Positions 6,094 to 38,497 of a stretch of DNA of 38,497 nucleotides are shown piece after piece; position 1 is the stretch's first letter; each line of letters begins with the position of its first letter. Both the position numbers and the translations under genes were made by a program. Under the pieces are notes generated by a model. The model saw nothing but the letters and a program-made list of their open reading frames with translations. It ran no database searches and was not told the DNA's origin. The DNA is from Saccoglossus kowalevskii (Eukaryota > Hemichordata > Enteropneusta > Harrimaniidae): NCBI RefSeq assembly GCF_000003605.2, contig NW_003108664.1, positions 3,651-42,147 on the forward strand, written 5' to 3'.

Positions 6094-6155
6094 AAGTAAA
6101 GCACGATCGGGCGTGGTTAGTACTTGCATGGGAGACTCCCTGAATACACGAGCTG
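6094..6155 (+). pseudogene. 5S rRNA-like segment in U6
   Basis: Identical to the array consensus. It is followed by an uninterrupted T9 run. Confidence 0.8.
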
Positions 6156-6165
6156 TTGAATTTAC

Positions 6166-6174
6166 TTTTTTTTT
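6166..6174 (+). terminator. T9 run after 5S-like segment (example copy, U6)
   Basis: Nine consecutive T begin 11 nt after the 5S-like segment. Runs of four or more T on the non-template strand end Pol III transcripts, and genuine 5S genes end this way. Every one of the 41 copies has a run of at least five T at this place, either intact (up to T11 in U21) or split by one G, C or A. This is a candidate by position only; no transcript is shown. Confidence 0.4.
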
Positions 6175-6428
6175 CATCACACACATGGAAATGATATAAG
6201 GCAACGTTCCTGCCTTTTTCCTTACTGTGATGTCAATCATTTATAGTTGAAAATCGTGGCATTTTTGTAAGTTTTTTTTATTTAATGGAATGTTTTAAAA
6301 TTCCTTCCAAATTTCGAGAACAAGCTGTTGATGCTGTCGGCACGTAGTGGGTTGTAAGATGTTAACGCACAGCGCAAAGTTGTTCAAAGTGAGTGCAAAG
6401 TTGTGCAAAGTCATTGAAAAATCTATAG

Positions 6429-17737: not shown

Positions 17738-18679
17738 ATGTATTTGTATATATGTCCCAAGTTGTTTGCATATAGAAACGCGCAGTGTAACGTCGACAAA
17801 TTTAATAAAAGCCAGTTGAAAGCAGTCAATAAATGTTCACATGAGCTGACTGTAAAATGGCAGAAAACAGCGTGCAAACTTGTAAAAAACGAAGGAAATG
17901 TTGGCGGAGTTGCTTGTATATTTAACCTAAGTCATTATCATGACAACCCCGCAGTTAAATTTCGAAAATATTAAGAAAATATTGCGTGAATGCCTCATGT
18001 AAAAGCAGATTATTACAACAGTCAAGCGAAAAATCGACAACAAACTGGTTACAAAGTTGTGAAAAGCGATTGCAAAGTTGGTAGTTACATTCGGGATTGT
18101 TACCTGTGATATCATAATAAGATGTCCCATAGTTAAAAGTTCGAAAATGTGAATAAATATTTCGTACATTGATGTTAAATTACCGTAGTGTTACTCCAAG
18201 TATGTAGAGGTCATAGGTCAATGCTAGAAGGTATTTGTGCAAGCAATATCGATTTAAGACATCCAAAAACATGAAATAGTCGCCAATTCCGTTTAATTTC
18301 AAATAAATCTTGCAGCTGAGTGGTTGGGTGACCGACATATGTTTTAAGTAAAGCACGATCGGGCGTGGTTAGTACTTGCATGGGATACTCCCTGAATACA
18401 TCAGCTGTTGAATTTACTTTTTTTTTCATCACACACATGGAAATGATATAAGGCAACCTTCCTGCCTTTTCCTTACTGTAATGTCAATCGTTTATAGTTG
18501 AAAATCGGTGGCATTTGTGTAAGTTTTTTTATTTAATGGAATGTTTTAAAATTCCTTCTAAATTTCGAGAACAAGCTGTTGATGCTGTCTGCATGTAGTG
18601 GGTTGTAAGATGTTAACGCACAGCGCAAAGTTGTTCAAAGTGAGTGCAAAGTTGTGCAAAGTTATTAAAAAGTATATAG
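17738..18679 (+). repeat. Satellite unit U19
   Basis: 942 bp. It repeats the private variants of U15 (GCAAACTTG, AAGAAAATATTGCG, CATGTAAAAGCAG) at a distance of 3771 bp. Confidence 0.95.
18346..18407 (+). pseudogene. 5S rRNA-like segment in U19
   Basis: Three departures: G41T (GGGATACTCCC), C56T and G57C. A T9 run follows. Confidence 0.78.
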
Positions 18680-19621
18680 ATGTATTTGTATATATGTCCC
18701 AAGTTGTTTGCATATAGAAACGCGCAGTGTAACGTCGACAAATTTAATAAAAGCCAGATGAAAGCAGTCAAAAAATGTTCACATGAACTGACTGTAAAAT
18801 GGCAGAAAACAGCGTGCAAAGTTGTAAAAAACGAAGGAAATGTTGGCGGAGTTGCTTGTATATTTAACCTAAGTCTTTATCATGACAACCCCGCAGTTAC
18901 ATTTCGAAAATATTAAGTAAATGTTGCGTGAATGCCTCATATATAAGCAGATTATCACAACAGTCAAGCGGAAAATCGATAACAAACTGGTTACAAAGTT
19001 GTGAAAAGCGTTTGCAAAGTTGGTAGTTTCATTCGGGATTGTTACCTGTGATATCATAATAACATGTCCCATAGTTAAAAGTTCGAAAATGTGAATAAAT
19101 ATTTCGTACATTGATGTTAAATTACCGTAGTGTTACTCCATGTATGTAGAGGTCATAGGTCAATGCTAGAAGGTATTTGTCCAAGCAATATCGATTTAAG
19201 ACATCCAAAAACATGAAATAGTCGCCAATTCCGTTTAATTTCAAATAAGTCTTGCAGCTGAGTGGTTGGGTGACCGACATATGTTTTAAGTAAAGCACGA
19301 TCGGGCGTGGTTAGTACTTGCATGGGAGACTCCCTGAATACATCAGCTGTTGAATTTACTTTTTTTTTCATCACACACATGGAAATGATATAAGGCAACG
19401 TTCCTGCCTTTTCCTTACTGTAATGTCAATCGTTTATAGTTGAAAATCGGTGGCATTTGTGTAAGTTTTTTTATTTATTGGAATGTTTTAAAATTCCTTC
19501 CAAATTTCGAGAACAAGCTGTTGATGCTGTCGGCACGTAGTGGGTTGTAAGATGTTAACGCACAGCGCAAAGTTGTTCAAAGTGAGTGCAAAGTTGTGCA
19601 ATGTCATTGAAAAGTCTATAG
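18680..19621 (+). repeat. Satellite unit U20
   Basis: 942 bp. Mosaic: AAAATCGATAAC and AGCGTTTGC as in U16/U17, then ACCGACATATG and ATTTGTGTAAG as in U15/U19. CAGATGAAAGCAGTCAAAAA is private. Confidence 0.95.
19288..19349 (+). pseudogene. 5S rRNA-like segment in U20
   Basis: Two departures, C56T and G57C. A T9 run follows. Confidence 0.8.
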
Positions 19622-20565
19622 ATGTATTTGTATATATGTCCCGAGTTGTTGGCATATAGAAACGCGCAGTGTAACGTCGACAAATTTAATAAAAGCCAGT
19701 TGAAAGCAGTCAATAAATGTTCACATGAGCTGACTGTAAAATGGCAGAAAACAGCGTCCAAAGTTGTAAAAAACGAAGGAAATGTTGGCGGAGTTGCTTG
19801 TATATTTAACCAAAGTCATTATCATGACAACTCCGCAGTTAAATTTCGAAAATATTAAGTAAATATTGCGTGAATGCCTCATATATAAGCAGATTATTAC
19901 AACAGTCAAGCGAAAAATCGACAACAAACTGGTTACAAAGTTGTGAAAAGCGATTGCAAAGTTGGTAGTTTCATTCGGGATTCTTACCTGTGATATCATA
20001 ATAACATGTCCCATAGTTAAAAGTTCGAAAATGTGAATAAATATTTCGTACATTGATGTTAAATTACCGTAGTGTTACTCCAAGTATGTAGAGGTCATAG
20101 GTCAATGCTAGAAGGTATTTGTGCAAGCAATATCGATTTTAAGACATCCAAAAACATTAAATAGTCGCCAATTCGGTTTAATTTCAAATAAGACTTGCAG
20201 CTGAGTGGTTGGATGACTGACATACGTTTTAAGTAATGCACGATCGGGCGTGGTTAGTACTTGCATGGGAGACTCCCTGAATACATGAGCTGTTGAATTT
20301 ACTTTTTTTTTTTCATCACACACATGGAAATGATATAAAGGCAACGTTCCTGCCCTTTCCTTACTGTAATGTCAATCGTTTATAGTTGAAAATCGTGGCA
20401 TTTTTGTAAGTTTTTTTATTTAATGGAATGTTTTAAAATTCCTTCCAAATTTCGAGAACAAGATTTGATGCTGTCGGCACGTAGTGGGTTGTAAGATGTT
20501 AAAGTACAGCGCAAAGTTGTTTAAAGTGAGTGCAAAGTTGTGCAAAGTCATTGAAAAATCTATAG
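19622..20565 (+). repeat. Satellite unit U21
   Basis: 944 bp. TTTAACCAAAG near 19806 is shared with U27 and U32. An extra A lies in ATATAAAGGC, and 2 nt are lost in AACAAGATTTGATG near 20460. Confidence 0.95.
20231..20292 (+). pseudogene. 5S rRNA-like segment in U21
   Basis: Two departures, A7T and C56T. The T run is the longest in the array, T11. Confidence 0.8.
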
Positions 20566-21507
20566 ATGTATTTGTATATATGTCCCAAGTTGTTGGCATA
20601 TAGAAACGCGCAGTGTAACGTCGACAAATTTAATAAAAGCCAGTTGAAAGCAGTCAATAAATGTTCACATGAGCTGACTGTAAAATGGCAGAAAACAGCG
20701 TGCAAAGTTGTAAAAAACGAAGGAAATGTTGGCGGACTTGCTTGTATATTTTACCTAAGTCATTATCATGACAACCCCGCAGTTAAATTTCGAAAATATT
20801 AAGTAAATGTTGCGTGAATGCCTCATATATAAGCAGATTACCACAACAGTCAAGCGAAAAATCGACAACAAACTGGTTACAAAGTTGTGAAAAGCGATTG
20901 CAAAGTTGGTAGTTTCATTCGGGATTGTTAACTGTGATATCATGATAACATGTCCCAGAGTTAAAAGTTCGAAAATGTGAATAAATATTTCGTACATTGA
21001 TATTAAATTACCGTAGTGTTACTCCCAGTATGTAGAGGTCATAGGTCAATCCTAGAAGGTATTAGTGCAAGCAATATCGATTTTAAGACATCCGAAAACA
21101 TGAAATAGTCAGCAATTCGGTTTAATTTCAAATAAGTCTTGCAGCTGAGTGGTTGGGTGACTGACAGATGTTTTAAGTAAAGCACGATCGGGCGTGGTTA
21201 GTACTTGTATGGGAGACTCCCTGAAAACACGAGCTGTTGAAGTTACTTTTTTTTCATCACACACATGGAAATGATATTAGGCAACGTTCCTGCCTTTTTC
21301 CTTACTGGGATGTCAATCATTTATAGTTGAAAATCGTGGCATTTTTGTAAGTTTTTTTATTTAATGGAATGTTTTAAAATTCCTTCTAAATTTCGAGAAC
21401 AAGCTGTTGATGCTGTCGGCACGTAGTGGGTTGTAAGATGTTAACGCACAGCGCAAAGTTGTTAAAAGTGAGTGCAAGGTTGTGCAAAGTCATTGAAAAG
21501 TCTATAG
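20566..21507 (+). repeat. Satellite unit U22
   Basis: 942 bp. Private variants include GATTACCACAAC, GTCCCAGAGTT and GTATTAGTGCAAG. From here rightward the central-subfamily block gives way to the CTGTGATGTCAATCATT type, apart from U30. Confidence 0.95.
21175..21236 (+). pseudogene. 5S rRNA-like segment in U22
   Basis: Two departures, C34T and T52A. A T8 run follows. Confidence 0.8.
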
Positions 21508-22453
21508 ATGTATTTGTATATATGTCCCAAGTTGTTGGCATATAGAAACCCACAGTGTAACGTCGACAAATTTAATAAAAGCCAGTTGAAAGCAGTCAAT
21601 AAATGTTCACATGAGCTGACTGTAAAATTGCAGAAAACAGCGTGCAAAGTTGTAAAAAAACGAAGGAAATGTTGGCGAAGTTGCTTGTATATTTATCCCT
21701 AAGTCATTATCATGACATCCCCGCATTTAAATTTTGAAAATATTAAGTAAATGTTGCGTGAATGCCTCATATATCAGCAGATTATCACAACAGTCAAGCG
21801 AAAAATCGACAACAAACTGGTTACAAAGTTGTGAAAAGCGATTGCAAAGTTGGTAGTTTCATTCGGGATTGTTACCTGTGATATCATACTAACGTTTCCC
21901 ATAGTTAAAAGTTTGAAAATGTGAATAAATATTTCGTACAATGATGTTAAATTACCATAGTGTTACTCCAAGTATGTAGAGGACATATGTCAATCCTGGA
22001 AGGTATTTGTGCAAGCAATATCGATTTAAAGACATCCAAAAACATGAAATAGTCGCCAATTCGGTTTAATTTCAAATAAGTCTTGCAGCTGAGTGGTTGG
22101 GTGTCTGACATACATTTTAAGTAAAGCACGATCGGGCGTGGTTAGTACTTGCATGGGAGACTCCCTGAATACACGTGCTGTTGAATTTACTTTTTTTGTT
22201 CCATCACACACATGGAAATGATATAAGGCAACGTTCCTGCCTTTTTCCTTACTGTGATGTCAATCATTTATAGTTGAAAATCGTGGCATTTTTGTCAGTT
22301 TTATTATTTAATGGAATGTTTTAAAATTCCTTCCAAATTTCGAGAACAAGCTGTTGATGCTGTCGGCACGTAGTGGGTTGTAAGATGTTAACGCACAGCG
22401 CAACGTTGTTCAAAGTGAGTGCAAAGTTGTGCAAATCATTGAAAAGTCTATAG
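21508..22453 (+). repeat. Satellite unit U23
   Basis: 946 bp. GACATCCCC, TATATCAG, ATACTAACGTTTCCC, ACAATGATG and GAGGACATA mark it as the distant partner of U1. Confidence 0.95.
22119..22180 (+). pseudogene. 5S rRNA-like segment in U23
   Basis: One departure, A58T (CACGTGCTG), shared only with U34. T7 is followed by GTTCC. Confidence 0.8.
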
Positions 22454-23393
22454 ATGTATTTGTATATATGTCCTAACTGTGGCATATAGAAACGCGCAGT
22501 GTAACGTCGACAAATTTAATAAAAGCCAGTTGAAAGCAGTCAATAAATGTTCACATGAACTGACTGTAAAATTGCAGAAAACAGCGTGCAAAGTTGTAAA
22601 AAACAAAGGAAATGTTGGCGGAGTTGCTTGTATATTTAACCTAAGTCATTATCATGACAACCCTGCAGTTAAATTTCGAAAATATTAAGTAAATGTTGCG
22701 TGAATGCCTCATATATAAGCAGATTATCACAACAGTCAAGCGAAAAATCGACAACAAACTGTTTACAAAGTTGTGAAAAGCGATTGCAAAGTTGGTAGTT
22801 TCATTCGGGATTGTTACCTGTGATTTCATAATAACATGTCCCATAGTTAAAAGTTCGAAAATGTGAATAAATATTTCGTACATTGATGTTAAATTACCGT
22901 AGTGTTACTCCAAGTATGTAGAGGTCATAGGTCAATCCTAGAAGGTATTTGTGCAAGCAATATCGATTTTAAGACATCCAAAAACATGAAATAGTCGCCA
23001 ATTCGGTTTAATGTCAAATAAGTCTTGCAGCTTTGTGGTTGGGTGACTGACATATGTTTTAAGTAAAGCACGATCGGGCGTGGTTAGTACTTGCATGGGA
23101 GACTCCCTGAATACACGAGCTGTTGAATTTACTTTTTTTTCATCACACACATGGAAATGATATAAGGCAACGTTCCTGCCTTTTTCCTTACTGTGATGTC
23201 AATCATTTATAGTTGAAAATCGTGGCATTTTTGTAAGTTTTTTTATTTAATGGAATGTTTTAAAATTCCTTCCAAATTTCGAGAACAAGCTGTTGATGCT
23301 GTCGGCACGTAGTGGGTTGTAAGATGTTAACGCACAGCGCAAAGTTGTTCAAAGTGAGTGCAAAGTTGTGCAAAGTCATTGAAAAGTCTATAG
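22454..23393 (+). repeat. Satellite unit U24
   Basis: 940 bp. The landmark is followed by GTCCTAACTGTGGC, a short loss relative to GTCCCAAGTTGTTGGC. GTTTGTGG... is not present; instead AGCTTTGTGG near 23031 is private. Confidence 0.95.
23061..23122 (+). pseudogene. 5S rRNA-like segment in U24
   Basis: Identical to the array consensus. A T8 run follows. Confidence 0.8.
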
Positions 23394-24340
23394 ATGTATT
23401 TGTATATATGTCCCAAGTTGTTGGCATACAGAAACGCGCAGTGTAAAGTCGACACATTTAATAAAAGCCAGTTGAAAGCTTTCAATAAATGTTCACATGA
23501 GCTGACTGTAAAATTGCAGAAAACAGCGTGCAAAGTTGTTAAAAACGAAGGAAATGTTGGCGGAGTTGCTTGTATATTTAACCTAAGTCATTATCATGAC
23601 AACCCTGCAGTTAAATTTCGAAAATATTAAGTAAATGTTGCGTGAATGCCTCATATATAAGCAGATTATCACAACAGTCAAGCGAAAAATCGACAACAAA
23701 CTGGTTACAAATTTGTGAAAAGCGATTTCAAAGTTGGTAGTTTCATTCGGGATTGTTACCTGTGATATCATAGTAACGTTTCCCATAGTTAAAGGTTCGA
23801 AAATGTGAATTAATATTTTGTACATTGATGTTAAATTACCGTAGTGTTACTCCAAGTATGTAGAGGTCATAGGTCAATCCTAGAATGTATTTGTGCAAGC
23901 AATATCGATTTTAAGACATCCAAAAACATGAAATAGTCGCCAATTCGGTTTAACTTCAAATAAGTCTTGCAGCTGAGTGGTTAGGTGACTGACATATGTT
24001 TAAAGTAAAGCACGATCGGGCGTGGTTAGTACTTGCATAGGAGACTCCCTGAATATACGAGCTGTTGAATTTACTTTTTTTTTGTTTCATCACGCACATG
24101 GAAATGATATAAGGCAACGTTCCTGCTTCTTTGCTTACTGTGATGTCAATCATTTATAGTGGAAAATCGTGGCATTTTTGTAAGTTTGTTTATTTAATGG
24201 AATGTTTAAAAATTCCTTCTAAATTTCGAGAACAAGCTGTTGATGCTGTCGGCACTTAGTGGGTTGTAAGATGTTAACGCACAGCGCAAAGCTGTTCAAA
24301 GTGAGTGCAAAGTTGTGCAAAGTCATTGAAAATTCTATAG
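23394..24340 (+). repeat. Satellite unit U25
   Basis: 947 bp. ATAGTAACGTTTCCC near 23770 is shared with U26. CTTCTTTGCTTACTG near 24124 resembles the U0/U34 variant. Confidence 0.95.
24003..24064 (+). pseudogene. 5S rRNA-like segment in U25
   Basis: Two departures, G37A (ATAGGAGAC) and C54T. T9 is followed by G and T3. Confidence 0.8.
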
Positions 24341-25283
24341 ATGTATTTGTATATATGTCCCAAGTTATTGGCATATAGAAACGCGCAGTGTAACGTCGAC
24401 AAATTTAATAAAAGCCAGTTGAAAGCAGTCAATAAATGTTCACATGAGCTGACTGAAAAATGGCAGAAAACAGCGTGCAAAGTTGTAAAAAACGAGGGAA
24501 ATGTTGGCGGAGTTGCTTGTATATTTAACCTAAGTCATTATCATGACAATCCCGCAGTTAAATTTCGAAAATATTAAGTAAATGTTGCGTGAATGCCTCA
24601 TATATAAGCAGATTATCACAACAGTCAAGCGAAAAATCGACAACAAACTGGTTACAAAGTTATGTAAAGCGATTGCAAAGTTGGTAGTTTCATTCGGGAT
24701 TGTTACCTGTGATATCATAGTAACGTTTCCCATAGTTAAAAGTTGAAAAATGTGAAGAAATATCGTGTACATTGATGTTCAATTACCGTAGTGTTACTCC
24801 AAGTATGTAGAGGTCATAGGTCAATCCTAGAAGGTATTTGTGCAAGCAATATCGATTTTAAGACATCCAAAAACATGAAATAGTCGCCAATTCGGTTTAA
24901 TTTGAAATAAGTCTTGCAGCTGTGTGGTTGGGTGACTGACATATGTTTTAGGTAAAGCACGATCGGGCGTGGTTAGTACTTGCATGGGAGACTCCCTGAA
25001 TACACGAGCTGTTGAATTTACTTTTTTTTTCATCACACACATGGAAATGATATAAGGCAACGTTCCTGCCTTTTTTCTTACTGTGATGTCAATCATTTAT
25101 AGTTGAAAATCGTGGCATTTTTGTAAGTTTTTTTATTTAATGGAATGTTTCAAAATTCCTTAAAAATTTCGAGAACAAGCTGTTGATGCTGTCGGCACGT
25201 AGTGGGATGTAAGATGTTAACGCACAGCGCAAAGTTGTTCAAAGTGAGTGCAAAGTTGTGCAAAGTCATTGAAAAGTCTATAG
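24341..25283 (+). repeat. Satellite unit U26
   Basis: 943 bp. It shares ATAGTAACGTTTCCC with U25. TGAAGAAATATCGTGTAC near 24755 is private. Confidence 0.95.
24950..25011 (+). pseudogene. 5S rRNA-like segment in U26
   Basis: One departure, A2G at the box A edge. A T9 run follows. Confidence 0.8.
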
Positions 25284-26220
25284 ATGTATTTTTATATATG
25301 TCCCAAGTTGTTGGCATATAGAAACGCACAGTGTAACGTCGACAAATTTAATAAAAGCCAGTTGAAAGCAGTCAAGAAATGTTCACATGAACTGACTGTA
25401 AAATGGCAGAAAACAGCGTGCAAAGTTGTAAAAAACGAAGGAAATGTTGGCGGAGTTGCTTGTATATTTAACCAAAGTCATTATCATGACAACCCCGCAG
25501 TGAAATTTCGAAAATATTAAGTAAATGTTGCGTGAATGCCTCATATATAAGCAGATTATCACAACAGTCAAGCGGAAAATCGACAACAAACTGGTTACAA
25601 GGTTCTGAAAAGCGTTTGCAAAGTTGGTAGCTTCATTCGCGATTGTTACCTGTGATATCATAATAACATGTCCCATAGTTAAAAGTTCGAAAATGTGAAT
25701 AAATATTTCGTACATTGATGTTAAATTACCGTAGTGTTACTCCAAGTATGTAGAGGTTATAGGTCAATCCTAGAATGTATTTGTGCAAGCAAAATCGATT
25801 TTAAGACATCCAAAAACATGAAATAGTCGCCAATTCGGTTTAACTTCAAATAAGTCTTGTAGCTGAGTGGTTGGGTATGTATTAAGTAAAGCACGATCGT
25901 GTGTGCATAGTACTTGCATGGGAGACTCCCTGAATACACGAGCTGTTGCATTTACTTTTTTTTATCACACACATGGAAACGATATAATATAAGGCAACGT
26001 TCCTGCCTTTTTCCTTACTGTGATGTCAATCATTTATAGTTGAAAATCGTGGCATTTTTGTAAGTTTTTTTATTTATTGGAATGTTTTAAAATTCCTTCC
26101 AAATTTCGAGAACAAGCTGTTGATGCTGTCGGCACGTAGTGGGTTGTAAGATGTTAACGCACAGCGCAAAGTTGTTCAAAGTGAGTGCAAAGTTGTGCAA
26201 AGTCATTGAAAAGTCTATAG
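25284..26220 (+). repeat. Satellite unit U27
   Basis: 937 bp. A 10-nt loss (GACTGACATA) sits near 25876, just upstream of the 5S-like segment. A 5-nt gain makes GATATAATATAAGGC near 25981. Confidence 0.95.
25884..25945 (+). pseudogene. 5S rRNA-like segment in U27
   Basis: Four departures: G17T, C19T, G23C and T24A, all in the box A/intermediate-element part. A T8 run follows. Confidence 0.75.
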
Positions 26221-26807
26221 ATGTATTTGTATATATGTCCCAAGTTGTTGGCATATAGAAACGCGCAGTGTAACGTCGACAAATTTAATAAAAGCCAGTT
26301 GAAAGCAGTCAATAAATGTTCACATGAGCTGACTGTAAAATGGCAGAAAACAGCGTGCAAACTTGTAAAAAACGAAGGAAATGTTGGCGGAGTTGCTTGT
26401 ATATTTAACCTAAGTCATTATCATGACAACCCCGCAGTTAAATTTCGTGGTTGGGTGACTGACATATGTATTAAGTAAAGCACGATCGGGTGTGGTTAGT
26501 ACTTGCATGGGAGACTCCCTGAATACACGAGCTGTTGAATTTACGATGTTTTTTCATCACACACATGGAAATGATATAAGGCAACGTTCCTGCTTTTTTC
26601 CTTACTGTGATGTCAATCATTTATAGTTGAAAATCGTGGCATTTTTGTAAGTTTTTTTATTTAATGGAATGTTTTAAAATTCCTTCTAAATTTCGAGAAC
26701 AAGCTGTTGATGCTGTCGGCACGTAGTGGGTTGTAAGATGTTAACGCACAGCGCAAAGTTGTTCAAAGTGAGTGCAAAATTGTGCAAAGTTATTAAAAAG
26801 TATGTAG
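26221..26807 (+). repeat. Satellite unit U28, truncated hybrid (587 bp)
   Basis: The only short unit. AAATTTCG (26440-26447) is joined directly to TGGTTGGGTGACTGAC, removing 357 bp that include the TATATAAG motif. The left part has GCAAACTTG like U15/U19. The right part has ATGTATTAAG, GGGTGTGG and GATGTTTTTTC like U16/U17. At most 1 nt of homology is seen at the join. Confidence 0.95.
26473..26534 (+). pseudogene. 5S rRNA-like segment in U28
   Basis: One departure, C19T. It lies 25 nt right of the deletion join and is intact. A T6 run follows. Confidence 0.8.
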
Positions 26808-27751
26808 ATGTATTTGTATATATGTCCCAAGTTGTTGGCATATAGAAACGCGCATGGTAACGTCGACAAATTTAATAAAAGCCAGTTGAAAGCAGTCAAG
26901 AAATGTTCACATGAACTGACTGTAAAATGGCAGAAAACAGCGTGCAAAGTTGTAAAAAACGAAGGAAATGTTGGCGGAGTTGCTTGTATATTTAACCTAA
27001 GTCATTATCATGACAACCCCGCAGTGAAATTTCGAAAATATTAAGTAAATGTTGCGTGAATGCCTCATATATAAGCAGATTATCACAACAGTCAAGTGAA
27101 AAATCGACAACAAACTGGTTACAAAGTTGTGAAAAGCGATTGCAAAGTTAGTAGTTTCATTCGGGATTGTTAACTGTGATAACATAATAACATGTCCCGT
27201 AGTTAAAAGTACGAAAATGTGAATAAATATTTCGTACATTGATGTTAAATTACCGTAGTGTTACTCCAAGTATGTAGAGGTCATGGGTCAATTCTAGAAG
27301 GTATTTGTGCAAGCAATATCGATTTTAAGACATCCAAAAACATGAAATAGACGCCAATTCGATTTAATTTCAAATAAGTCTTGCAGCTGAGTGGTTGGGT
27401 GACTGACATATGTTTTAAGTAAAGCACGATCGGGCGTGGTTAGTACTAGCATGGGAGACTCCCTGAATACACGAGCTGTTGCATTTACTTTGATTTTTCA
27501 TCACACACATGGAAATGATATAAGGCAACGTTCCTGCCTTTTTCTTTACTGTGATGTCAATCATTTATAGTTGAAAATCGTGGCATTTTTGTAAGTTTTT
27601 TTATTTAATGGAATGTTTTAAAATTCCTTCCAAATTTCGAGAACAAGCTGTTGATGCTGTCGGCACGTAGTGGGTTGTAAGATGTTAACGCACAGCGCAA
27701 AGTAGTTCAAAGTGAGTGCAAAGTTGTGCAAAGTCATTGAAAAGTCTATAG
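26808..27751 (+). repeat. Satellite unit U29
   Basis: 944 bp. GTTAACTGTGATAACAT near 27171 resembles U9. CGCATGGTAACG near 26850 is shared with U16. Confidence 0.95.
27417..27478 (+). pseudogene. 5S rRNA-like segment in U29
   Basis: One departure, T32A (GTACTAGC). The T tract is T3-GA-T5. Confidence 0.8.
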
Positions 27752-28693
27752 ATGTATTTGTATATATGTCCCAAGTTGTTGGCATATAGAAACGCGCAGT
27801 GTAACGTCAACAAATTTAATAAAAGCCAGTTGAAAGCAGTCAATAAATGTTCACATGAGCTGACTGTAAAATGGCAGAAAACAGCGTGCAAAATTGTAAA
27901 AAACGAAGGAAATGTTGGCGGAGTTGCTTGTATATTTAACCTAAGTCATTATCATGACAATCCCGCATGTTACATTTCGAAAATATTAAGTAAATGTTGC
28001 GTGAATGCCTCATATATAAGCAGATTATCACAAGAGTCAAGCGGAAAATCGATAACAAACTGGTTACAAAGTTGTGAAAAGCGTTTGCAAAGTTGGTAGT
28101 TTCATTCGGGATTGTTACCTGTGATACCATAATAACATGTCCCATAGTTAAAAGTTCGAAAACGTGAATAAATATTTCGTACATTGATGTTAAATTACCG
28201 TAGTGTTACTCCAAGTATGTAGAGGTCATAGGTCAATGCTAGAAGGTATTTGTGCAAGCAATATCGATTTAAGACATCCAAAAACATGAAATAGTCGCCA
28301 ATTCCGATTAATTTCAAATAAGTCTTGTAGATGAGTGGTTGGGTGACTGACATATGTTTTAAGTAAAGCACGATCGGGCGTGGTTAGTACTTGCATGGGA
28401 GACTCCCTGAATACATCAGCTGTTGAATTTACTTTTTTTTCATCACACACATGGAAATGATATAAGGCAACGTTCCTGCCTTTTCCTTACTGTAATGTCA
28501 ATCGTTTATAGTTGAAAATCGGTGGCATTTGGGTAAGTTTTTTTATTTAATGGAATGTTTTAAAATTCCTTCCAAATTTCGAGAACAAGCTGTTAATGCT
28601 GTCGGCACTTAGTGGGTTGTAAGATGTTAACGCACAGCGCAAAGTTGTTCAAAGTGAGTGCAAAGTTGTGCAATGTCATTGAAAAGTCTATAG
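27752..28693 (+). repeat. Satellite unit U30
   Basis: 942 bp. Mosaic: CGTCAACAAATTT as in U9, AAAATCGATAAC and TTGTAGATGAGTGG as in U16/U17, ACATCAGCTG and the central-subfamily block near 28490. It is an island of the central type among right-hand units. Confidence 0.95.
28361..28422 (+). pseudogene. 5S rRNA-like segment in U30
   Basis: Two departures, C56T and G57C. A T8 run follows. Confidence 0.8.
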
Positions 28694-29635
28694 ATGTATT
28701 TGTATATATGTCCCAAGTTGTTGGCATATAGAAACGCGCAGTGTAACGTCGACAAATTTAATAAAAGCCAGTTGAAAGCAGTCAATAAATGTTCACATGA
28801 GCTGACTGTAAAATGGCAGAAAACGCGTGCAAAGTTGTAAAAAACGAAGGATATGTTGGCGGAGTTGCTTGTATATTTTTCCTAAGTCATTTTCATGACA
28901 ACCCCGCAGTTAAATTTCGAACATATTAAGTAAATGTTGCGTGAATGCCTCATATATAAGCAGATTATCACAACTGTCAAGCGAAAAATCGACAACAAAC
29001 TGGTTACAAAGTTGTGAAAAGCGATTGCAAAGTTGGTAGTTTCATTCGGGATTGTTAACTGTGATATCATAATAACATGTCCCATAGTTAAAAGTTCGAA
29101 AATGTGAATAAATATTTCGTACATTGATGTTAAATTACCGTAGTGTTACTCCAAGTATGTGGAGGTCATAGGTCAATCCTAGAAGGTATTTGTGCAAGCA
29201 ATATCGATTTTAAGACATCCTAAAACATGAAATAGTCGGCAATTTGGTTTAATTTCAAATAAGTCTTGCAGCTGAGTGGTTGGGTGACTGACATATGTTT
29301 TAAGTAAAGCACGATCGGGCGTGGTTAGTACTTGCATGGGAGATTCCCTGAATACACGAGCTGTTGAATTTACTTTTTTTTTCATCACACACATGGAAAT
29401 GATATTAGGCAACGTTCCTGCCTTTTTCCTTACTGTGATGTCAATCATTTATAGTTGAAAATCGTGGCATTTTTGTAAGTTTTTTTATTTAATGGAATGT
29501 TTTAAAATTCCTTCCAAATTTCGAGAACAAGCTGTTGATGCTGTCGGCACGTAGTGGCTTGTAAGATGTTAACGCACAGCGCAAAGTTGTTCAAAGTGGG
29601 TACAAAGTTGTGCAAAATCATTGAAAAGTCTATAG
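28694..29635 (+). repeat. Satellite unit U31
   Basis: 942 bp. ATATTTTTCCTAAG, CGAACATATTAAG and ATCCTAAAACATG match U14, 15.67 kb to the left. Confidence 0.95.
29302..29363 (+). pseudogene. 5S rRNA-like segment in U31
   Basis: One departure, C43T. A T9 run follows. Confidence 0.8.
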
Positions 29636-30579
29636 ATGTATTTGTATATATGTCCCAAGTTGTTGGCATATAGAAACGCACAGTGTAACGTCGACAAATT
29701 TAATAAAAGCCAGTTGAAAGCAGTCAATAAATGTTCACATGAGCTGACTGTAAAACTGCAGAAAACAGCGTGCAAAGTTGTAAAAAACGAAGGAAATGTT
29801 GGCGGAGTTGCTTGTATATTTAACCAAAGTCATTATCATGACAACCCCGCAGTTAAATTTCGAAAATATTAAGTAAATGTTGCGTGAATGCCTCATATAT
29901 AAGCAGATTATCACAACAGTCAAGCGAAAAATCGACAACAAACTGGTTACAAAGTTGTGAAAAGCGATTGCAAAGTTGGTAGTTTCATTCGGGATTGTTA
30001 ACTGTGATATCATAATAACATGTCCCATAGTTAAAATTCGAAAATGTGAATAAATATTTCGTATATTGATGTTAAATTACCGTAGTGTTACTCCAAGTAT
30101 GTAGAGGTCATAGGTCAATCCTAGAAGGTATTTGTGCAAGCAATATCAATTTTAAGACATCCAAAAACATGAAATAGTCGCCAATTCGGTTTAATTTCAA
30201 ATAAGTCTTGCAGCTGAGTGGTTGGGTGACTGACATATGTTTTAAGTAAAGCACGATCGGGCGTGGTTAGTACTTGCATGGGAGACTCCCTGAATACACG
30301 AGCTGTTGAATTTACTTTTTGTTTTTCATCACACACATGGAAATGATATAGGGCAACGTTCCTGCCTTTTTCCTTACTGTGATGTCAATCATTTATAATT
30401 GAAAATCGTGGCATTATTGTAAGTTTTTTTATTTAATGGAATGTTTTAAAATTCCTTCCAAATTTCGAGAACAAGCTGTTGATGCTGTCGGCACGTAGTG
30501 GGTTGTAAGATGTTAACACACAGCGCAAAGTTGTTCAAAGTGAGGGCAAAGTTGTGCAAAGTCATTGAAAAGTCTATAG
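29636..30579 (+). repeat. Satellite unit U32
   Basis: 944 bp. TTTAACCAAAG is shared with U21 and U27. TAAAATTCGAAAATG near 30032 has lost two bases. Confidence 0.95.
30244..30305 (+). pseudogene. 5S rRNA-like segment in U32
   Basis: Identical to the array consensus. T5-G-T5 follows. Confidence 0.8.
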
Positions 30580-31523
30580 ATGTATTTGTATATATGTCCC
30601 AAGTTGTTGGCATATAGAAACGCGCAGTGTAACGACGACAAATTTAATAAAAGCCAGTTGAAAGCACTCAATAAATGTTCACATGAGCTGACTGTAAAAT
30701 TGCAGAAAACAGCGTGCAAAGTTGTTAAAAACGAAGGAAATGTTGGCGGAGTTGCTTGTATATTTAACCTAAGTCATTATCATGACAACCCCGCAGTTAA
30801 ATTTCGAAAATATTAAGTAAATGTTGCGTGAATGCCTCATATATAAGCAGATTATCACAACAGTCAAGCGAAGAATCGACAACAAACTGGTTACAAAGTT
30901 GTGTAAAGCGATTGCAAAGTTGGTAGTTTCATTCGGGATTGTTACCTGTGATATCATAATAAGATGTCCCATAGTTAAAAGTACGAAAATGTGAATAAAT
31001 ATTTCGTACATTGATGTTAAATTACCGTAGTGTTACTCCAAGTATGTAGAGGTCATAGGTCAATCCTAGAAGGTATTTGTGCAAGCAATATCGATTTTAA
31101 GACATCCAAAAACATGAAATAGTCGCCAATTCGGTTTAATTTCAAATAAGACTTGCCGCTGAGTGGTTGGGTGACTGACCATTGTTTTAAGTAAAGCACG
31201 ATCGGGCGTGGTTAGTACTTGCATGGGAGACTCCCTGAATACACGAGCTGTTGAATTTACTTTTTTTTTCATCACACACATGGAAATGATATAAGGCAAC
31301 GTTCCTGCCTTTTTCCTTGCTGTGATGTCAATCATTTATAGTTGAAAATCGTGGCATTTTTGGTAAGTTTTTTTATTTAATGGAATGTTTTAAAATTCCT
31401 TCCAAATTTTGAGAACAAGCTGTTGATGCTGTCGGCACGTAGCGGGTTGTAAGATGTTAACGCGCAGCGCAAAGTTGTTCAAAGTGAGTGCAAAGTTGTG
31501 CAAAGTCATTGAAAAGTCTATAG
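30580..31523 (+). repeat. Satellite unit U33
   Basis: 944 bp. AAGTACGAAAATG and CGAAGAATCGAC are the main variants. GACTTGCCGCTGAG near 31150 is private. Confidence 0.95.
31189..31250 (+). pseudogene. 5S rRNA-like segment in U33
   Basis: Identical to the array consensus. A T9 run follows. Confidence 0.8.
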
Positions 31524-32469
31524 ATGTATTTGTATATATGTCCCAAGTTGTTGGCATATAGAAACGCACAGTGTAACGTCGACAAATTTAATAAAAGCCA
31601 GTTGAAAGCAGTCAATAAATGTTCACATGAGCTGACTGTAAAATTGCAGGAAACAGCGTGCAAAGTTGTAAAAAACGAAGGAAATGTTGGCGGAGTTGCT
31701 TGTATATTTACCCTAAGTCATTATCATGACAACCCCGCAGTTAAATTTTGAAAATATTAAGTAAATGTTGCGTGAATGCCTCATATATCAGCAGATTATC
31801 ACAACAGTCAGCGAAAAATCGACAACAAACTGGTTACAAAGTTGTGAAAAGCGATTGCAAAGTTGGTAGTTTCATTCGGGATTGTTACCTGTGATATCAT
31901 AATAACATGTCCCATAGTTAAAAGTTCGAAAATGTGAATAAATATTTCGTACACTGATGTTAAATTACCGTAGTGTTACTCCAAGTATGTAGAGGTCATG
32001 GGTAAATCCTAGAAGGTATTTGTACAAGCAATATCGATTTCAAGGCATCCAAAAACCTGAAATAGTCGCCAATTTGGTTAAATTTCCAATAAGTCTTGCA
32101 GCTGAGTGGTTGGGTGACTGACATATGTTTTAAGTAAAGCACGATCGGGCGTGGTTAGTACTTGCATGGGAGACTCCCTGAATACACGTGCTGTTGAATT
32201 TACTTTTTTTTGTTCCATCACACACATGGAAATGATATAAGGCAACGTTCCTGCCTCTTTGCTTACTGCGATGTCAATAATTTATAGTGGAAAATCGTGG
32301 CATTTTTGTAAGTTTTTTTATTTAATGGAATGTTTTAAAATTCCTTCCAAATTTCGAGAACAAGCTGTTGATGCTGTCGGCACGTAGTGGGGTTTTAAGA
32401 TGTTAACGCACAGCGCAAAGTTGTTCAAAGTGAGTACAAAGTTGTGCAAAATCATTGAAAAGTCTATAG
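31524..32469 (+). repeat. Satellite unit U34
   Basis: 946 bp. TATATCAG near 31785 and CTCTTTGCTTACTGCGATG near 32253 tie it to U0. GTACAAGC is present near 32029. Confidence 0.95.
32132..32193 (+). pseudogene. 5S rRNA-like segment in U34
   Basis: One departure, A58T, as in U23. T8 is followed by GTTCC. Confidence 0.8.
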
Positions 32470-33413
32470 ATGTATTTGTATATATGTCCCAAGTTGTTGG
32501 CATATAGAAACGCACAGTGTAACGTCGACAAATTTAATAAAAGCCAGTTGAAAGCAGTCAATAAATGTTCACATGAGCTGACTGTAAAATTGCAGAAAAC
32601 AGCGTGCAAAGTTGTAAAAAACGAAAGGAATGTTGGCGGAGTTGCTTGTATATTTAACCTAAGTCATTATCATGACAACCCCGCAGTTAAATTTCGAAAA
32701 TATTAAGTAAATGTTGCGTGAATGCCTCATATATAAGCAGATTATCACAACAGTCAAGTGAAAAATCGACAACAAACTGGTTACAAAGTTGTGTAAAGCG
32801 ATTGCAAAGTTGGTAGTTTCATTCGGGATTGTTACCTGTGATATCATAATAACATGTCCAATAGTTAAAAGTTCGAAAATGTGAATAAATATTTCGTACA
32901 TTGATGTTAAATTACTGTAGTGTTACTCCAAGTATGTAGAGGTCATAGGTCAATCCTAGAAGGTATTTGTGCAAGCAATATCGATTTTAAGACATCCAAA
33001 AACATGAAATAGTCGCCAATTCGGTTTAATTTCAAATAAGTCTTGCAGCTGAGTGGTTGGGTGACTGACAAATGTTTTAAGTAAAGCACGATCGGGCGAG
33101 GTTAGTACTTGCATGGGAGACTCCCTGAATACACGAGCTGTTGCATTTACTTTGTTTTTTCATCACACACATGGAAATGATATAATGCAAAGTTCCTGCC
33201 TTTTTCCTTACTGTGATGTCAATCATTTATAGTTGAAAATCGTGGCATTTTCGTAAGTTTTTTTATTTAATGGAATGTTTTAAAATTCCTTCCAAATTTC
33301 GAAAACAAGCTGTTGATGCTGTCGGCACGTAGTGGGTTGTAAGATGTTAACGCACAGCGCAAAGTTGCTCAAAGTGAGTGCAAAGTTGTGTAAAGTCATT
33401 GAAAAGTCTATAG
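32470..33413 (+). repeat. Satellite unit U35
   Basis: 944 bp. GTCCAATAGTT, ATTACTGTAG and ATGCAAAGTTCC are shared with U5, whose length differs by exactly the four bases lost in U5. Confidence 0.95.
33079..33140 (+). pseudogene. 5S rRNA-like segment in U35
   Basis: One departure, T21A (GCGAGGTTAG). T3-G-T6 follows. Confidence 0.8.
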
Positions 33414-34357
33414 ATGTATTTGTACATATGTCCCAAGTTGTTGGCATATAGAAACGCGCAGTGTAACGTCGACAAATTTAATAAAAGCCAGTTGAAAGCA
33501 GTCAATAAATGTTCACATGAGCTGACTGTAAAATGGCAGAAAACAGCGTGCAAAGTTGTAAAAAACGAAGGAAATGTTGGCGGAGTTGCTTGTATATTTA
33601 ACCTAAGTCATTATCATGACAACCCCGCAGTTAAATTTCGAAAATATTAAGTAAATGTTGCGTGAATGCCTCATATATAAGCAGATTATCACAACAGTCA
33701 AGTGAAAAATCGACAACAAACTGGTTACAAAGTTGTGTAAAGCGATTGCAAAGTTGGTAGTTTCATTCGGGATTGTTACCTGTGATATCATAATAATATG
33801 TCCCATAGTTAAAAGTTCGAAAATGTGAATAAATATTTCGTACATTGATGTTAAATTACCGTAGTGTTACTCCAAGTATGTAGAGGTCATAGGTCAATCC
33901 TAGAAGGTATTTGTGCAAGCAATATCGATTTTAAGACATCCAAAAACATGAAATAGTCGCCAATTCGGTTTAATTTCAAATAAGTCTTGCAGCTGAGTGG
34001 TTGGGTGACTGACAAATATTTTAAGTAAAGCACGATCGGGCGTGGTTAGTACTTGCATGGGAGACTCCCTGAATACACGAGCTGTTGCATTTACTTTGTT
34101 TTTTCATCACACACATGGAAATGATATAATGCAACGTTCCTGCCTTTTTCCTTACTGTGATGTCAATCATTTATAGTTGAAAATCGTGGCATTTTCGTAA
34201 GTTTTTTTATTTAATGGAATGTTTTAAAATTCCTTCCAAATTTCGAAAACAAGCTGTTGATGCTGTCGGCACGTAGTGGGTTGTAGGATGTTAACGCACA
34301 GCGCAAAGTTGCTCAAAGTGAGTGCAAAGTTGTGTAAAGTCATTGAAAAGTCTATAG
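33414..34357 (+). repeat. Satellite unit U36
   Basis: 944 bp. First of four consecutive units with exactly equal or near-equal spacing and very few differences. GTACATATGTCCC and TTGCTCAAAG mark this type. Confidence 0.95.
34023..34084 (+). pseudogene. 5S rRNA-like segment in U36
   Basis: Identical to the array consensus. T3-G-T6 follows. Confidence 0.8.
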
Positions 34358-34976
34358 ATGTATTTGTACATATGTCCCAAGTTGTTGGCATATAGAAACG
34401 CGCAGTGTAACGTCGACAAATTTAATAAAAGCCAGTTGAAAGCAGTCAATAAATGTTCACATGAGCTGACTGTAAAATTGCAGAAAACAGCGTGCAAAGT
34501 TGTAAAAAACGAAGGAAATGTTGGCGAAGTTTCTTGTATATTTAACCTAAGTCATTATCATAACAACCCCGCAGTTAAATTTCGAAAATATTAAGTAAAT
34601 ATTGCGTGAATGCCTCATATATAAGCAGATTATCACAACAGTCAAGCGAAAAATCGACAACAAACTGGTTACAAAGTTGTGAAAAGCGATTGCAAAGTTG
34701 GTAGTTTCATTCGGGATTGTTACCAGTGATATCATAATAACATGTCCCATAGTTAAAAGTTCGAAAATGTGAATAAATATTTCGTACATTGATGTTAAAT
34801 TACCGTAGTGTTACTCCAAGTATGTAGAGGTCATAGGTCAATCCTAGAAGGTATTTGTGCAAGCAATATCGATTTTAAGACATCCAAAAACAAGAAATAG
34901 TCGCCAATTCGGTTTATTTTCAAATAAGTCTTGCAGCTGAGTGGTTGGGTGACTGACAAATGTTTTAAGTAAAGCA

Positions 34977-35038
34977 CGATCGGGCGTGGTTAGTACTTGC
35001 ATGGGAGACTCCCTGAATACACGAGCTGTTGCATTTAC
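34977..35038 (+). pseudogene. 5S rRNA-like segment in U37
   Basis: Identical to the array consensus. T3-C-T6 follows, a variant shared with U38. Confidence 0.8.
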
Positions 35039-35244
35039 TTTCTTTTTTCATCACACACATGGAAATGATATAATGCAACGTTCCTGCCTTTTTCCTTACT
35101 GTGATGTCAATCATTTATAGTTGAAAATCGTGGCATTTTCGTAAGTTTTTTTATTTAATGGAATGTTTTAAAATTCATTCCAAATTTCGAAAACAAGCTG
35201 TTGATGCTGTCGGCACGTAGTGGGTTGTAAGATGTTAACGCACA

Positions 35245-35297
35245 GCGCAAAGTTGCTCAAAGTGAGTGCAAAGTTGTGTAAAGTCATTGAAAAGTCT
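35245..35297 (+). repeat. Phased AAAG subrepeats (example copy)
   Basis: AAAG or AAAAG begins at 35249, 35259, 35270, 35280 and 35290, a spacing of 10, 11, 10 and 10 bp. The motif is roughly GCAAAGTTGT repeated with variation. The same short motif appears again at 35617-35641 (spacing 10 and 11) and at 35437. A-runs repeated once per helical turn tend to bend DNA, but these runs are only 3-4 A long, so any bend would be modest. The block is present at the same place in every unit. Confidence 0.6.
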
Positions 35298-35561
35298 ATA
35301 GATGTATTTGTACATATGTCCCAAGTTGTTGGCATATAGAAACGCGCAGTGTAACGTCGACAAATTTAATAAAAGCCAGTTGAAAGCAGTCAATAAATGT
35401 TCACATGAGCTGACTGTAAAATGGCAGAAAACAGCGTGCAAAGTTGCAAAAAACGAAGGAAATGTTGGCGGAGTTGCTTGTATATTTAACCTAAGTCATT
35501 ATCATAACAACCCCGCAGTTAAATTTCGAAAATATTAAGTAAATATTGCGTGAATGCCTCA

Positions 35562-35569
35562 TATATAAG
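35562..35569 (+). promoter_or_regulatory. TATATAAG motif, one per unit (example copy, U38)
   Basis: A perfect match to the Pol II TATA consensus (TATAWAAG) recurs at the same place in most units. It is TATATCAG in U0, U1, U23 and U34, is lost in U15 and U19, and is deleted in U28. It lies 342 nt upstream of the 5S-like segment, so it is not a Pol III upstream box for it. In DNA this AT-rich, chance origin before amplification is likely. No initiator is evident 25-30 nt downstream. Confidence 0.2.
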
Positions 35570-35910
35570 CAGATTATCACAACAGTCAAGCGAAAAATCG
35601 ACAACAAACTGGTTACAAAGTTGTGAAAAGCGATTGCAAAGTTGGTAGTTTCATTCGGGATTGTTACCTGTGATATCATAATAACATGTCCCATAGTTAA
35701 AAGTTCGAAAATGTGAATAAATATTTCGTACATTGATGTTAAATTACCGTAGTGTTACTCCAAGTATGTAGAGGTCATAGGTCAATCCTAGAAGGTATTT
35801 GTGCAAGCAATATCGATTTTAAGACATCCAAAAACATGAAATAGTCGCCAATTCGGTTTAATTTCAAATAAGTCTTGCAGCTGAGTGGTTGGGTGACTGA
35901 CAAATGTTTT

Positions 35911-35972
35911 AAGTAAAGCACGATCGGGCGTGGTTAGTACTTGCATGGGAGACTCCCTGAATACACGAGCTG
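35911..35972 (+). pseudogene. 5S rRNA-like segment in U38 (reference copy)
   Basis: The 62-nt segment follows animal 5S rRNA positions ~49 to ~113 in order. It begins with AAGTAAAGCA, which resembles the start of box A (AAGCTAAGCA in vertebrates, AAGTTAAGCA in many invertebrates). Then come TCGGGC, the 13-nt core TGGTTAGTACTTG, ATGGGAGAC from box C, CCT, GAATAC and GCTG. Against vertebrate 5S from memory, 46 of 54 aligned positions match up to GAATAC, with one 2-nt gap after CCT. The first ~48 nt of a 5S gene are not recognisable upstream; only GTCT (35872-35875) might correspond to its 5' end, and that is too short to support. The segment is identical in 12 of 41 copies. It cannot be a working 5S gene as it stands, because the 5' half is missing or unrecognisable and box C is altered. 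I call it a 5S-derived relic. Confidence 0.85.
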
Positions 35973-36245
35973 TTGCATTTACTTTCTTTTTTCATCACAC
36001 ACATGGAAATGATATAATGCAACGTTCCTGCCTTTTTCCTTACTGTGATGTCAATCATTTATAGTTGAAAATCGTGGCATTTTCGTAAGTTTTTTTATTT
36101 AATGGAATGTTTTAAAATTCATTCCAAATTTCGAAAACAAGCTGTTGATGCTGTCGGCACGTAGTGGGTTGTAAGATGTTAACGCACAGCGCAAAGTTGC
36201 TCAAAGTGAGTGCAAATTTGTGTAAAGTCATTGAAAAGTCTATAG

Positions 36246-37179
36246 ATGTATTTGTACATATGTCCCAAGTTGTTGGCATATAGAAACGCGCAGTGTAACG
36301 TCGACAAATTTAATAAAAGCCAGTTGAAAGCAGTCAATAAATGTTCACATGAGCTGACTGTAAAATGGCAGAAAACAGCGTGCAAAGTTGCAAAAAACGA
36401 AGGAAATGTTGGCGGAGTTGCTTGTATATTTAACCTAAGTCATTATCATAACAACCCCGCAGTTAAATTTCGAAAATATTAAGTAAATATTGCGTGAATG
36501 CCTCATATATAAGCAGATTATCACAACAGTCAAGCGAAAAATCGACAACAAACTGGTTACAAAGTTGTGAAAAGCGATTGCAAAGTTGGTAGTTTCATTC
36601 GGGATTGTTACCTGTGATATCATAATAACATGTCCCATAGTTAAAAGTTCGAAAATGTGAATAAATATTTCGTACATTGATGTTAAATTACCGTAGTGTT
36701 ACTCCAAGTATGTAGAGGTCATAGGTCAATCCTAGAAGGTATTTGTACAAGCAATATCGAATTTAAGGCGTCCAAAAACATGAAATAGTCGCCAATTCGG
36801 TTTAATTTCAAATAAGTCTTGCAGCTGAGTGGTTGGGTGACTGACATATGTTTTAAGTAAAGCACGATCGGGCGTGGTTAGTACTTGCATGGGAGACTCC
36901 CTGAATACACGAGCTGTTGAATTTACTTTGTTTTTTCATCACACACATGGAAATGATATAAGGCAACGTTCCTGCCTTTTTCCTTACTGTGATGGCAATC
37001 ATTTATAGTTGAAAATCGTGGCATTTTTGTAAGTTTTTTTATTTAATGGAATGTTTTAAAATTCCTTCCAAATTTCGAGAACAAGCTGTTGATGCTGTCG
37101 GCACGTAGTGGGTTGTAAGATGTTAACGCACAGCGCAAAGTTGTTCAAAGTGAGTGCAAAGTCATTGAAAAGTCTATAG
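36246..37179 (+). repeat. Satellite unit U39
   Basis: 934 bp. The first ~490 nt are identical to U38 by eye, apart from none or one change; from about 36745 it switches to GTACAAGCAATATCGAATTT. Ten nucleotides (TTGTGCAAAG, one subrepeat) are missing near 37160. Confidence 0.95.
36855..36916 (+). pseudogene. 5S rRNA-like segment in U39
   Basis: Identical to the array consensus. T3-G-T6 follows. Confidence 0.8.
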
Positions 37180-38121
37180 ATATATTTGTATATATGTCCC
37201 AAGTTGTTGGCATATAGAAACGCGCAGTGTAACGTCGACAAATTTAATAAAAGCCAGTTGAAAGCAGTCAATAAATGTTCACATGAGCTGACTGTAAAAT
37301 GGCAGAAAACAGCGTGCAAAGTTGTAAAAAACGAAGGACATGTTGGCGGAGTTGCTTGTATATTTAACCTAAGTCATTATCATGACAACCCCGCAGTTAA
37401 AATTCGAAAATATTAAGTAAATGTTGCGTGAATGCCTCATATATAAGCAGATTATCACAACAGTCAAGCGAAAAATCGACAACAAACTAGTTACAAAGTT
37501 GTGAAAAGCGATTGCAAAGTTGGTAGTTTCATTCGGGATTGTTAACTGTGATATCATAATAACATGTCCCATAGTTAAAGTTCGAAAATGTGAATAAATA
37601 TTTCGTACATTGATGTTAAATTACCGTAGTGTTACTCCAAGTATGTAGAGGTCATAGGTCAATCCTAGAAGGTATTTGTACAAGCAATATCGAATTTAAG
37701 GCATCCAAAAACATGAAATAGTCGCCAATTCGGTTCAATTTCAAATAAGTCTTGCAGCTGAGTGGTTGGGTGACTGACATATGTTTTAAGTAAAGCACGA
37801 TCGGGCGTGGTTAGTACTTGTATGGGAGACTCCCTGAATACACGAGCTGTTGCATTTACTTTTTTTTTCATCACACACATGGAAATGATATAAGGCAACG
37901 TTCCTGCCTTTTTCCTTACTGTGATGTCAATCATTTATAGTTGAAAATCGTGGCATTTTTGTAAGTTTTTTTATTTAATGGAATGTTTTAAAATTCCTTC
38001 TAAATTTCGAGAACAAGCTGTTGATGCTGTCGGCACGTAGTGGGTTGTAAGATGTTAACGCACAGCGCAAAGTTGTTCAAAGTGAGTGCAAAGTTGTGCA
38101 AAGTCATTGAAAAGTCTATAG
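37180..38121 (+). repeat. Satellite unit U40
   Basis: 942 bp. The landmark is ATATATTTGT. GTACAAGCAATATCGAATTT continues from U39. GAAGGACATGTTGG near 37335 and AACTAGTTAC near 37486 are private. Confidence 0.95.
37798..37859 (+). pseudogene. 5S rRNA-like segment in U40
   Basis: One departure, C34T (CTTGTATGGG), as in U22. A T9 run follows. Confidence 0.8.
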
Positions 38122-38497
38122 ATGTATTTGTATATATGTCCCAAGTTGTTGGCATATAGAAACGCGCAGCGTAACGTCGACAAATTTAATAAAAGCCAGT
38201 TGAAAGCAGTCAATAAATGTTCATATGAGCTGACTGTAAACTTGCAGAAAACAGCGTGCAAAGTTGTAAAAAACGAAGGAAATCTTGGCGGAGTTGCTTG
38301 TATATTTAACCTAAGTCATTATCATGACAACCCCGCAGTTAAATTTCGAAAATATTAAGTAAATGTTGCGTGAATGCCTCATATATAAGCAGATTATCAC
38401 AACAGTCAAGTGAAAAATCGACAACAAACTGGTTACAAAGTTGTGAAAAGCGATTGCAAAGTTAGTAGTTTCATTCGGGATTGTTAACTGTGATAAT
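38122..38497 (+). repeat. Satellite unit U41 (right partial)
   Basis: The first 376 nt of a unit, cut by the window edge before its 5S-like segment. CGCAGCGTAACG and GGAAATCTTGGC are private variants. Confidence 0.95.

What the first reader, a model, noticed from the sequence alone, without database searches (positions are those of the whole stretch)
35911..35972. Every satellite unit carries a 5S rRNA-like segment
Seen: TCGGGC, TGGTTAGTACTTG, ATGGGAGAC, CCT, GAATAC and GCTG occur in the order and nearly the spacing of animal 5S rRNA from box A to the 3' end, in 41 of 41 copies that reach this point, always on the same strand. Known: these blocks are the conserved TFIIIA/TFIIIC control region of 5S genes. 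Inference: the satellite contains a 5S-derived relic, and this identifies the genome as animal. A repeat-only annotation would miss it.
Basis: partly seen in the sequence, partly recalled or inferred. Interest (0 to 1): 0.85.

Follow-up and report, generated by a model that had tools for sequence, protein, structure and literature searches.

The report
Satellite DNA carrying 5S gene promoter
Each unit of this animal tandem repeat carries the promoter core of a ribosomal 5S RNA gene, and the same core sits in several other repeat families of the genome, so these repeats may be able to recruit the machinery that reads small-RNA genes.

Summary
The window is a tandem array of ~944-bp units, and all 41 copies that reach the point carry a block matching 5S rDNA on one strand. 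The six quoted strings are all exact in only 21 of 41. Rfam misses it unless the stretch is cut (18.8 bits, E 0.037, cut-off 38). The genome's own 5S gene settles it: 40 of 48 bases of the internal control region (ICR) match, 30 in a row.

The unit is composite: about 3.2 diverged ~172-bp modules plus a ~395-bp non-modular segment holding the 5S block. The ICR core occurs 3,675 times in the assembly, against 50 exact copies of the genuine 5S 3' signature. It lies in 216-, 728- and 941-945-bp arrays and in short dispersed arrays. Across diverged copies the ICR is kept better than the rest of the 5S sequence, modestly, and a T-run follows. Within the window's own array it is not better kept.

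It is a 5S-derived satellite, a known kind, in an unusual promoter-only form. Pol III activity is inferred, not shown.

The parts
1..38497 (+). Tandem array of ~944-bp units filling the window; 41 copies of the 5S-like block (first 429-527, last 37785-37880)
   Evidence: blastn of one unit against the window, block listing
35911..35972 (+). 5S-like block of the finding
   Evidence: Alignment to the genome's own 5S gene, nt 49-114
35912..35959 (+). Internal control region in register with 5S nt 50-97: box A 10 of 15, intermediate element 6 of 6, box C 15 of 18 identical to host 5S in the unit consensus
   Evidence: box limits recalled from Xenopus 5S numbering
35987..35992 (+). T-run, possible Pol III terminator; T>=5 downstream of the block in 41 of 41 copies, T>=6 in 37 of 41
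35730..36125 (+). Non-modular segment of about 395 bp that holds the 5S block (edges uncertain by about 15 nt)
   Evidence: No similarity to the modules on either strand above shuffles
35480..35729 (+). Diverged ~172-bp modules M3 and part of M4
   Evidence: M2/M3 107 of 157 identical, z 13.6; M3/M4 z 8.1
36126..36423 (+). Diverged ~172-bp modules M1 and M2
   Evidence: M1/M3 z 7.8, M2/M3 z 13.6, M1/M2 z 2.9

Best explanation
Shown: the ~944-bp satellite contains a fragment of the host's 5S rRNA gene and is one branch of a family of satellites in this genome that share the fragment. The internal control region (box A, intermediate element, box C) is in register, and a T-run follows. The rest of the 5S sequence has decayed or gone. 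Inferred: a 5S gene copy joined an older ~172-bp repeat, and the composite unit was multiplied by unequal exchange or rolling-circle amplification and seeded as short arrays elsewhere. While the family diverged, the promoter core was kept by weak selection, most likely because binding of TFIIIA/TFIIIC and low-level Pol III transcription of a short RNA ending at the T-run helped the repeat persist or be copied. The RNA is not expected to work as 5S rRNA. In the present, homogenised array the fragment may be carried passively.
For: ICR 40 of 48 identical to host 5S with 30 in a row. Consensus of 26 diverged copies: ICR 40 of 48, other 5S sites 20 of 47, p 4.5e-5. Copies picked by flanks only: ICR slower than the other 5S parts when pooled (2.71 against 4.00 and 3.80 changes per site, p 0.0024), slower than the unselected upstream flank (tail-picked, 2.12 against 2.61, p 0.04) and than the unselected tail (upstream-picked, 0.75 against 1.44, p<0.0001). 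T>=5 at the expected place in 34 of 39 diverged copies against 33% of control windows. Composite anatomy. Dispersed short arrays.
Against: Inside the window's array the block varies as much as the rest: 0.025 against 0.0246, rank 568 of 882 windows; ICR substitutions 0.0167 against 0.0222, rank 145 of 896, not significant. In one search the ICR is not slower than the other 5S parts in the tail-picked set (p 0.21) nor than the pooled tail (p 0.49), and other windows are as slow (183 of 376 tail-picked, 77 of 383 upstream-picked, 60 of 376 pooled). Copies without a 5S trace were dropped, which favours conserved ICRs. Box A is only 10 of 15. No RNA or binding data.
Confidence: 0.5

Rival explanations
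1. Passive relic: the 5S fragment was captured once, has no activity, is carried along by satellite amplification and decays neutrally.
For: No better conservation of the block inside the window's array; other windows evolve as slowly as the ICR.
Against: ICR kept better than the other 5S sites and T-run kept.
Confidence: 0.3
2. Gene conversion: genuine 5S genes or the 216-bp 5S satellite repeatedly overwrite the middle of the block, so its likeness to host 5S needs no selection.
For: The 30-base core is identical to host 5S in 21 of 41 window copies; many 5S-like donors exist.
Against: Fixed differences flank the core on both sides in the family consensus, so tracts would have to be very short.
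Confidence: 0.1
3. Mobile-element origin: the non-modular segment is a 5S-headed SINE or part of a TRIM such as Ajax that landed in an older satellite.
For: Ajax LTRs hold only box A, IE and box C with a diverged upstream part (PMC10886601, section 3.7), like this block; the segment is of SINE size.
Against: No primer-binding site better than shuffles and no purine run of 9 or more. No clear target-site duplication. Array edges differ among the eight dispersed loci examined.
Confidence: 0.15
4. Decayed 5S rDNA array: the unit is an old 5S rDNA repeat whose gene died and whose spacer became the satellite.
For: Unit length is of the order of the true 5S repeats (about 1,139 and 1,580 bp); some relatives keep traces of the 5' half.
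Against: The unit has no blastn similarity to either genuine 5S spacer outside the gene, and the modules point to an older repeat.
Confidence: 0.1

Closest known systems
PcP190 satellite of frogs (PMC11675491; two passages seen)
   Same: Satellite with a part derived from 5S rDNA beside an unrelated part. The 216-bp arrays of this genome resemble it most: a whole 5S copy plus a spacer that varies more.
   Different: PcP190 has ~190-bp units with a 120-bp 5S part; the 944-bp unit keeps mainly the promoter and has modules.
5SHindIII-DNA of the fish Hoplias malabaricus (PMC2713275; passages seen)
   Same: Tandem satellite holding a partial 5S (95 of 360 bp).
   Different: The rest of its unit resembles the true 5S spacer; here it does not.
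Ajax, a TRIM of ribbon worms (PMC10886601; abstract, passages, sections 3.7 and 4.2 seen)
   Same: Keeps only box A, IE and box C of 5S.
   Different: Ajax is an LTR element with PBS, PPT and 5-bp duplications; none of these was found here.
Cassandra of plants, also in tandem arrays (PMC7215508 and PMC10853983; passages seen)
   Same: 5S promoter in tandem units; its boxes mirror those of the host 5S, as the block here shares host bases.
   Different: LTR retroelements of plants.
SINE-derived satellites of reptiles (PMC10702118; abstract and outline seen)
   Same: Satellites built from pieces of a Pol III-transcribed element.
   Different: The source here is 5S, and no SINE was identified.

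Membership tests
5S rDNA-derived satellite DNA | Long head-to-tail tandem array | tested here: met
   About 40.7 units in the window; further arrays on other contigs
5S rDNA-derived satellite DNA | Part of each unit descends from the host's 5S gene | tested here: met
   40 of 48 ICR bases, score 67 against shuffle maximum 28
5S rRNA gene (RF00001) | Reaches Rfam's gathering score, whole gene present | tested here: not met
   No hit at default; 18.8 bits on a cut stretch, cut-off 38; 5' half at chance level
TRIM with 5S promoter (Ajax, Cassandra) | PBS and polypurine tract | tested here: not met
TRIM with 5S promoter (Ajax, Cassandra) | Target-site duplication and fixed element ends | tested here: inconclusive
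   No clear duplication at the segment edges; edges of eight dispersed loci differ
5S-derived SINE (SINE3) | 5S head, LINE-like tail, solitary copies | not tested
   No SINE library was at hand
Pol III transcription unit | Box A, IE, box C in register and a T-run | tested here: met
   box A is only 10 of 15
Pol III transcription unit | TFIIIA/TFIIIC binding and a Pol III transcript | not testable with these tools
   No RNA or binding data were at hand

The most novel reading that the evidence does not exclude
These repeats are promoter-bearing selfish satellites, a tandem-repeat counterpart of SINEs and Cassandra. Several satellite families of one animal genome carry a working 5S promoter, kept by selection because Pol III factor binding or transcription aids their amplification. 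With cores outnumbering assembled 5S genes by about 70 to 1, they could titrate TFIIIA/TFIIIC or organise chromatin.
Probability: 0.22. Interest if true: 0.75.

Novelty: new variant of a known kind. Interest (0 to 1): 0.48.

Why it matters
5S-derived satellites are usually read as dead gene copies. Here the parts that decayed and the parts that stayed differ by function: the promoter is kept, and the RNA-structure parts are largely lost. The core is spread over families of 216, 728 and 941-945 bp. That makes the idea that a satellite can be kept by its promoter directly testable with small-RNA and Pol III binding data. It also warns annotators: thousands of 5S cores in this genome are not intact 5S genes, and Rfam at default missed all 41 copies of this window.

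Tried and rejected
Rfam at default or on a 2-kb stretch: no 5S hit, presumably because the 5' half is missing. tRNA genes in the window: none. Selection on the block inside the window's array: none detectable. A first cross-family profile was set aside because its copies were picked by the 5S pattern itself; mix such copies in, so (flank-picked only) is the fairer test. Dropped rows: 5 of 31 copies; 4 of 32, 1 of 11 and 5 of 43 (no 5S trace at score 36, or N's). At least three of the dropped ones lie at array edges or in truncated units, but the rule favours conserved ICRs. Relatives elsewhere: viral contigs 0, 0 and 7 matches, the 7 with unrelated flanks; genome contigs 0 and 0. Other RNA families in the non-modular segment: only weak matches. 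LTR signs: none found. Paper searches; this satellite was not seen in their listings, of which I saw titles, starts of abstracts and the passages cited.

Full report
What is there. The window is one tandem array of ~944-bp units. The 40 complete or nearly complete monomers share a mean pairwise identity of 0.953. It lies in a 572-Mb assembly of 4,830 contigs, at contig C324:3651-42147; the bases before it read N. All 41 copies of the relevant point carry the 5S-like block on the same strand.

Is it 5S? Rfam does not report it at default nor on a 2-kb stretch. With the stretch cut at the 5S half, 5S is the only one of 4,227 families listed at E<=10 (18.8 bits, E 0.037; another copy 19.2 bits; one control stretch gave no 5S hit). 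On the 401-nt non-modular stretch it scores 13.3 bits, E 6.3. A direct comparison is stronger. Once the genome could be searched, genuine 5S genes were found in arrays of about 1,139 and 1,580 bp. Against that gene the ICR matches at 40 of 48 sites, with 30 identical in a row, and the score is 67 against a shuffle maximum of 28. The block shares CGTGG and GCATGGG with the host gene, where the recalled human gene differs. A 4-bp pairing of a 5S helix survives in 34 of 41 copies. The 5' half of 5S is at chance level upstream in this array.

Anatomy of the unit. Comparing the unit with itself shows about 3.2 diverged ~172-bp modules: M2/M3 107 of 157 identical, z 13.6; M1/M3 z 7.8; M3/M4 z 8.1; M1/M2 weak, z 2.9; M4 against M1 or M2 not above chance. 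The remaining ~395 bp resemble no module on either strand above shuffles and hold the 5S block. A T-run follows the block: T>=5 in 41 of 41 copies, T>=6 in 37 of 41.

The rest of the genome. The 22-base ICR core occurs 2,142 times forward and 1,533 times reverse, and the reversed control pattern never. The 944-type core with its own ending is exact 588 times, a 216-type 3' ending 808 times, the genuine 5S 3' signature 50 times. Collapse of true 5S arrays in the assembly could change that ratio. Among the contigs sampled, the core lies in 216-bp arrays whose unit holds a whole 5S copy 90.8-91.7% identical to the gene, in 728-bp arrays about 69% like the 944 unit, in ~941-945-bp arrays about 85% like it, and in short arrays inside large contigs. 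The 216-bp and 944-bp units match each other, and the genuine 5S repeats, only in the 5S part at blastn sensitivity. The arrays of the eight dispersed loci examined begin and end at differing points of the unit, which speaks against a discrete mobile element.

Selection or not. Inside the window's array the block is not better conserved. Across diverged copies the picture changes. The consensus of 26 copies agrees with host 5S at 40 of 48 ICR sites and 20 of 47 other sites (p 4.5e-5; this set includes copies found by the 5S pattern, and the alignment of the 5' half is uncertain). Of 14 copies picked by the downstream tail, 13 show a 5S trace in the fetched stretch (in one of them only in a neighbouring unit), and 6 align with host 5S from nt 23-35 onward, so the ancestor probably held more of the gene. 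To avoid picking copies by the ICR itself, I picked them by the downstream tail (queries) or by the upstream flank (query). Tail-picked (28 of 32): ICR 2.12 changes per site, upstream 2.61 (one-sided p 0.040), other 5S parts 2.52 and 2.25 (p 0.21), the tail used for picking 1.48. Upstream-picked (10 of 11): ICR 0.75, tail 1.44 (p<0.0001), other 5S parts 1.37 and 1.90 (p 0.0001), the flank used for picking 0.75. Pooled (38 of 43): ICR 2.71 against 4.00 and 3.80 in the other 5S parts (p 0.0024), upstream 3.32 (p 0.042), tail 2.67 (p 0.49). Other 48-nt windows are as slow as the ICR: 183 of 376, 77 of 383 and 60 of 376 in the three sets, counting those that overlap it (all). The effect is modest and the copies are related, so these p values are a guide only. 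The T-run is kept too: T>=5 in 34 of 39 copies against 33% of 193 control windows, T>=6 in 27 of 39 against 12%.

Reading. The segment is 5S-derived beyond reasonable doubt. The best account is a 5S fragment captured by an older modular satellite, with its promoter core kept preferentially while the family diverged. That fits retained Pol III factor binding or transcription, which no data here can show. A passive relic is the main rival.

Compared with what is known. 5S-derived satellites are known: PcP190 of frogs (passages), 5SHindIII of a fish (passages) and PLsatB of Plantago (mentioned in a passage of PMC11202950). Promoter-only 5S pieces are known in the TRIM Ajax (section 3.7), and Cassandra promoters mirror the host's boxes (passages). 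SINE-derived satellites are known in reptiles (abstract) and retrotransposon-derived ones in a legume (abstract). The window fits the satellite kind. It fails the TRIM marks that could be tested, and at most works like those elements.

Noticed in passing
L050 and L052 (contigs C111 and C242 of the same genome): A separate 216-bp satellite whose unit holds a whole 5S copy (90.8-91.7% identical to the gene); its spacer varies about twice as much as its 5S part (0.09-0.11 against 0.04-0.07).
   Followed up: partly
window 26372-26958: One short unit lacks about 356 bp (consensus 77-432), but keeps the 5S block.
   Followed up: no
window 1858-2800 and 4694-5635: These monomers are closest (99%) to monomers 28-34 kb away rather than to neighbours, a sign of long-range exchange or of assembly folding.
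   Followed up: no
window 35236-35467 and the same place in other units: The modules contain short, 10- and 21-bp repeats of GCAAAGTTG type, perhaps an older layer of the satellite.
   Followed up: no
L105 (contig C4830): Mitochondrial contig: COX1 match with seven in-frame TGA and an ND1-like frame with AGA at a Ser position and AAA at Lys positions (names recalled). It could name the species.
   Followed up: partly
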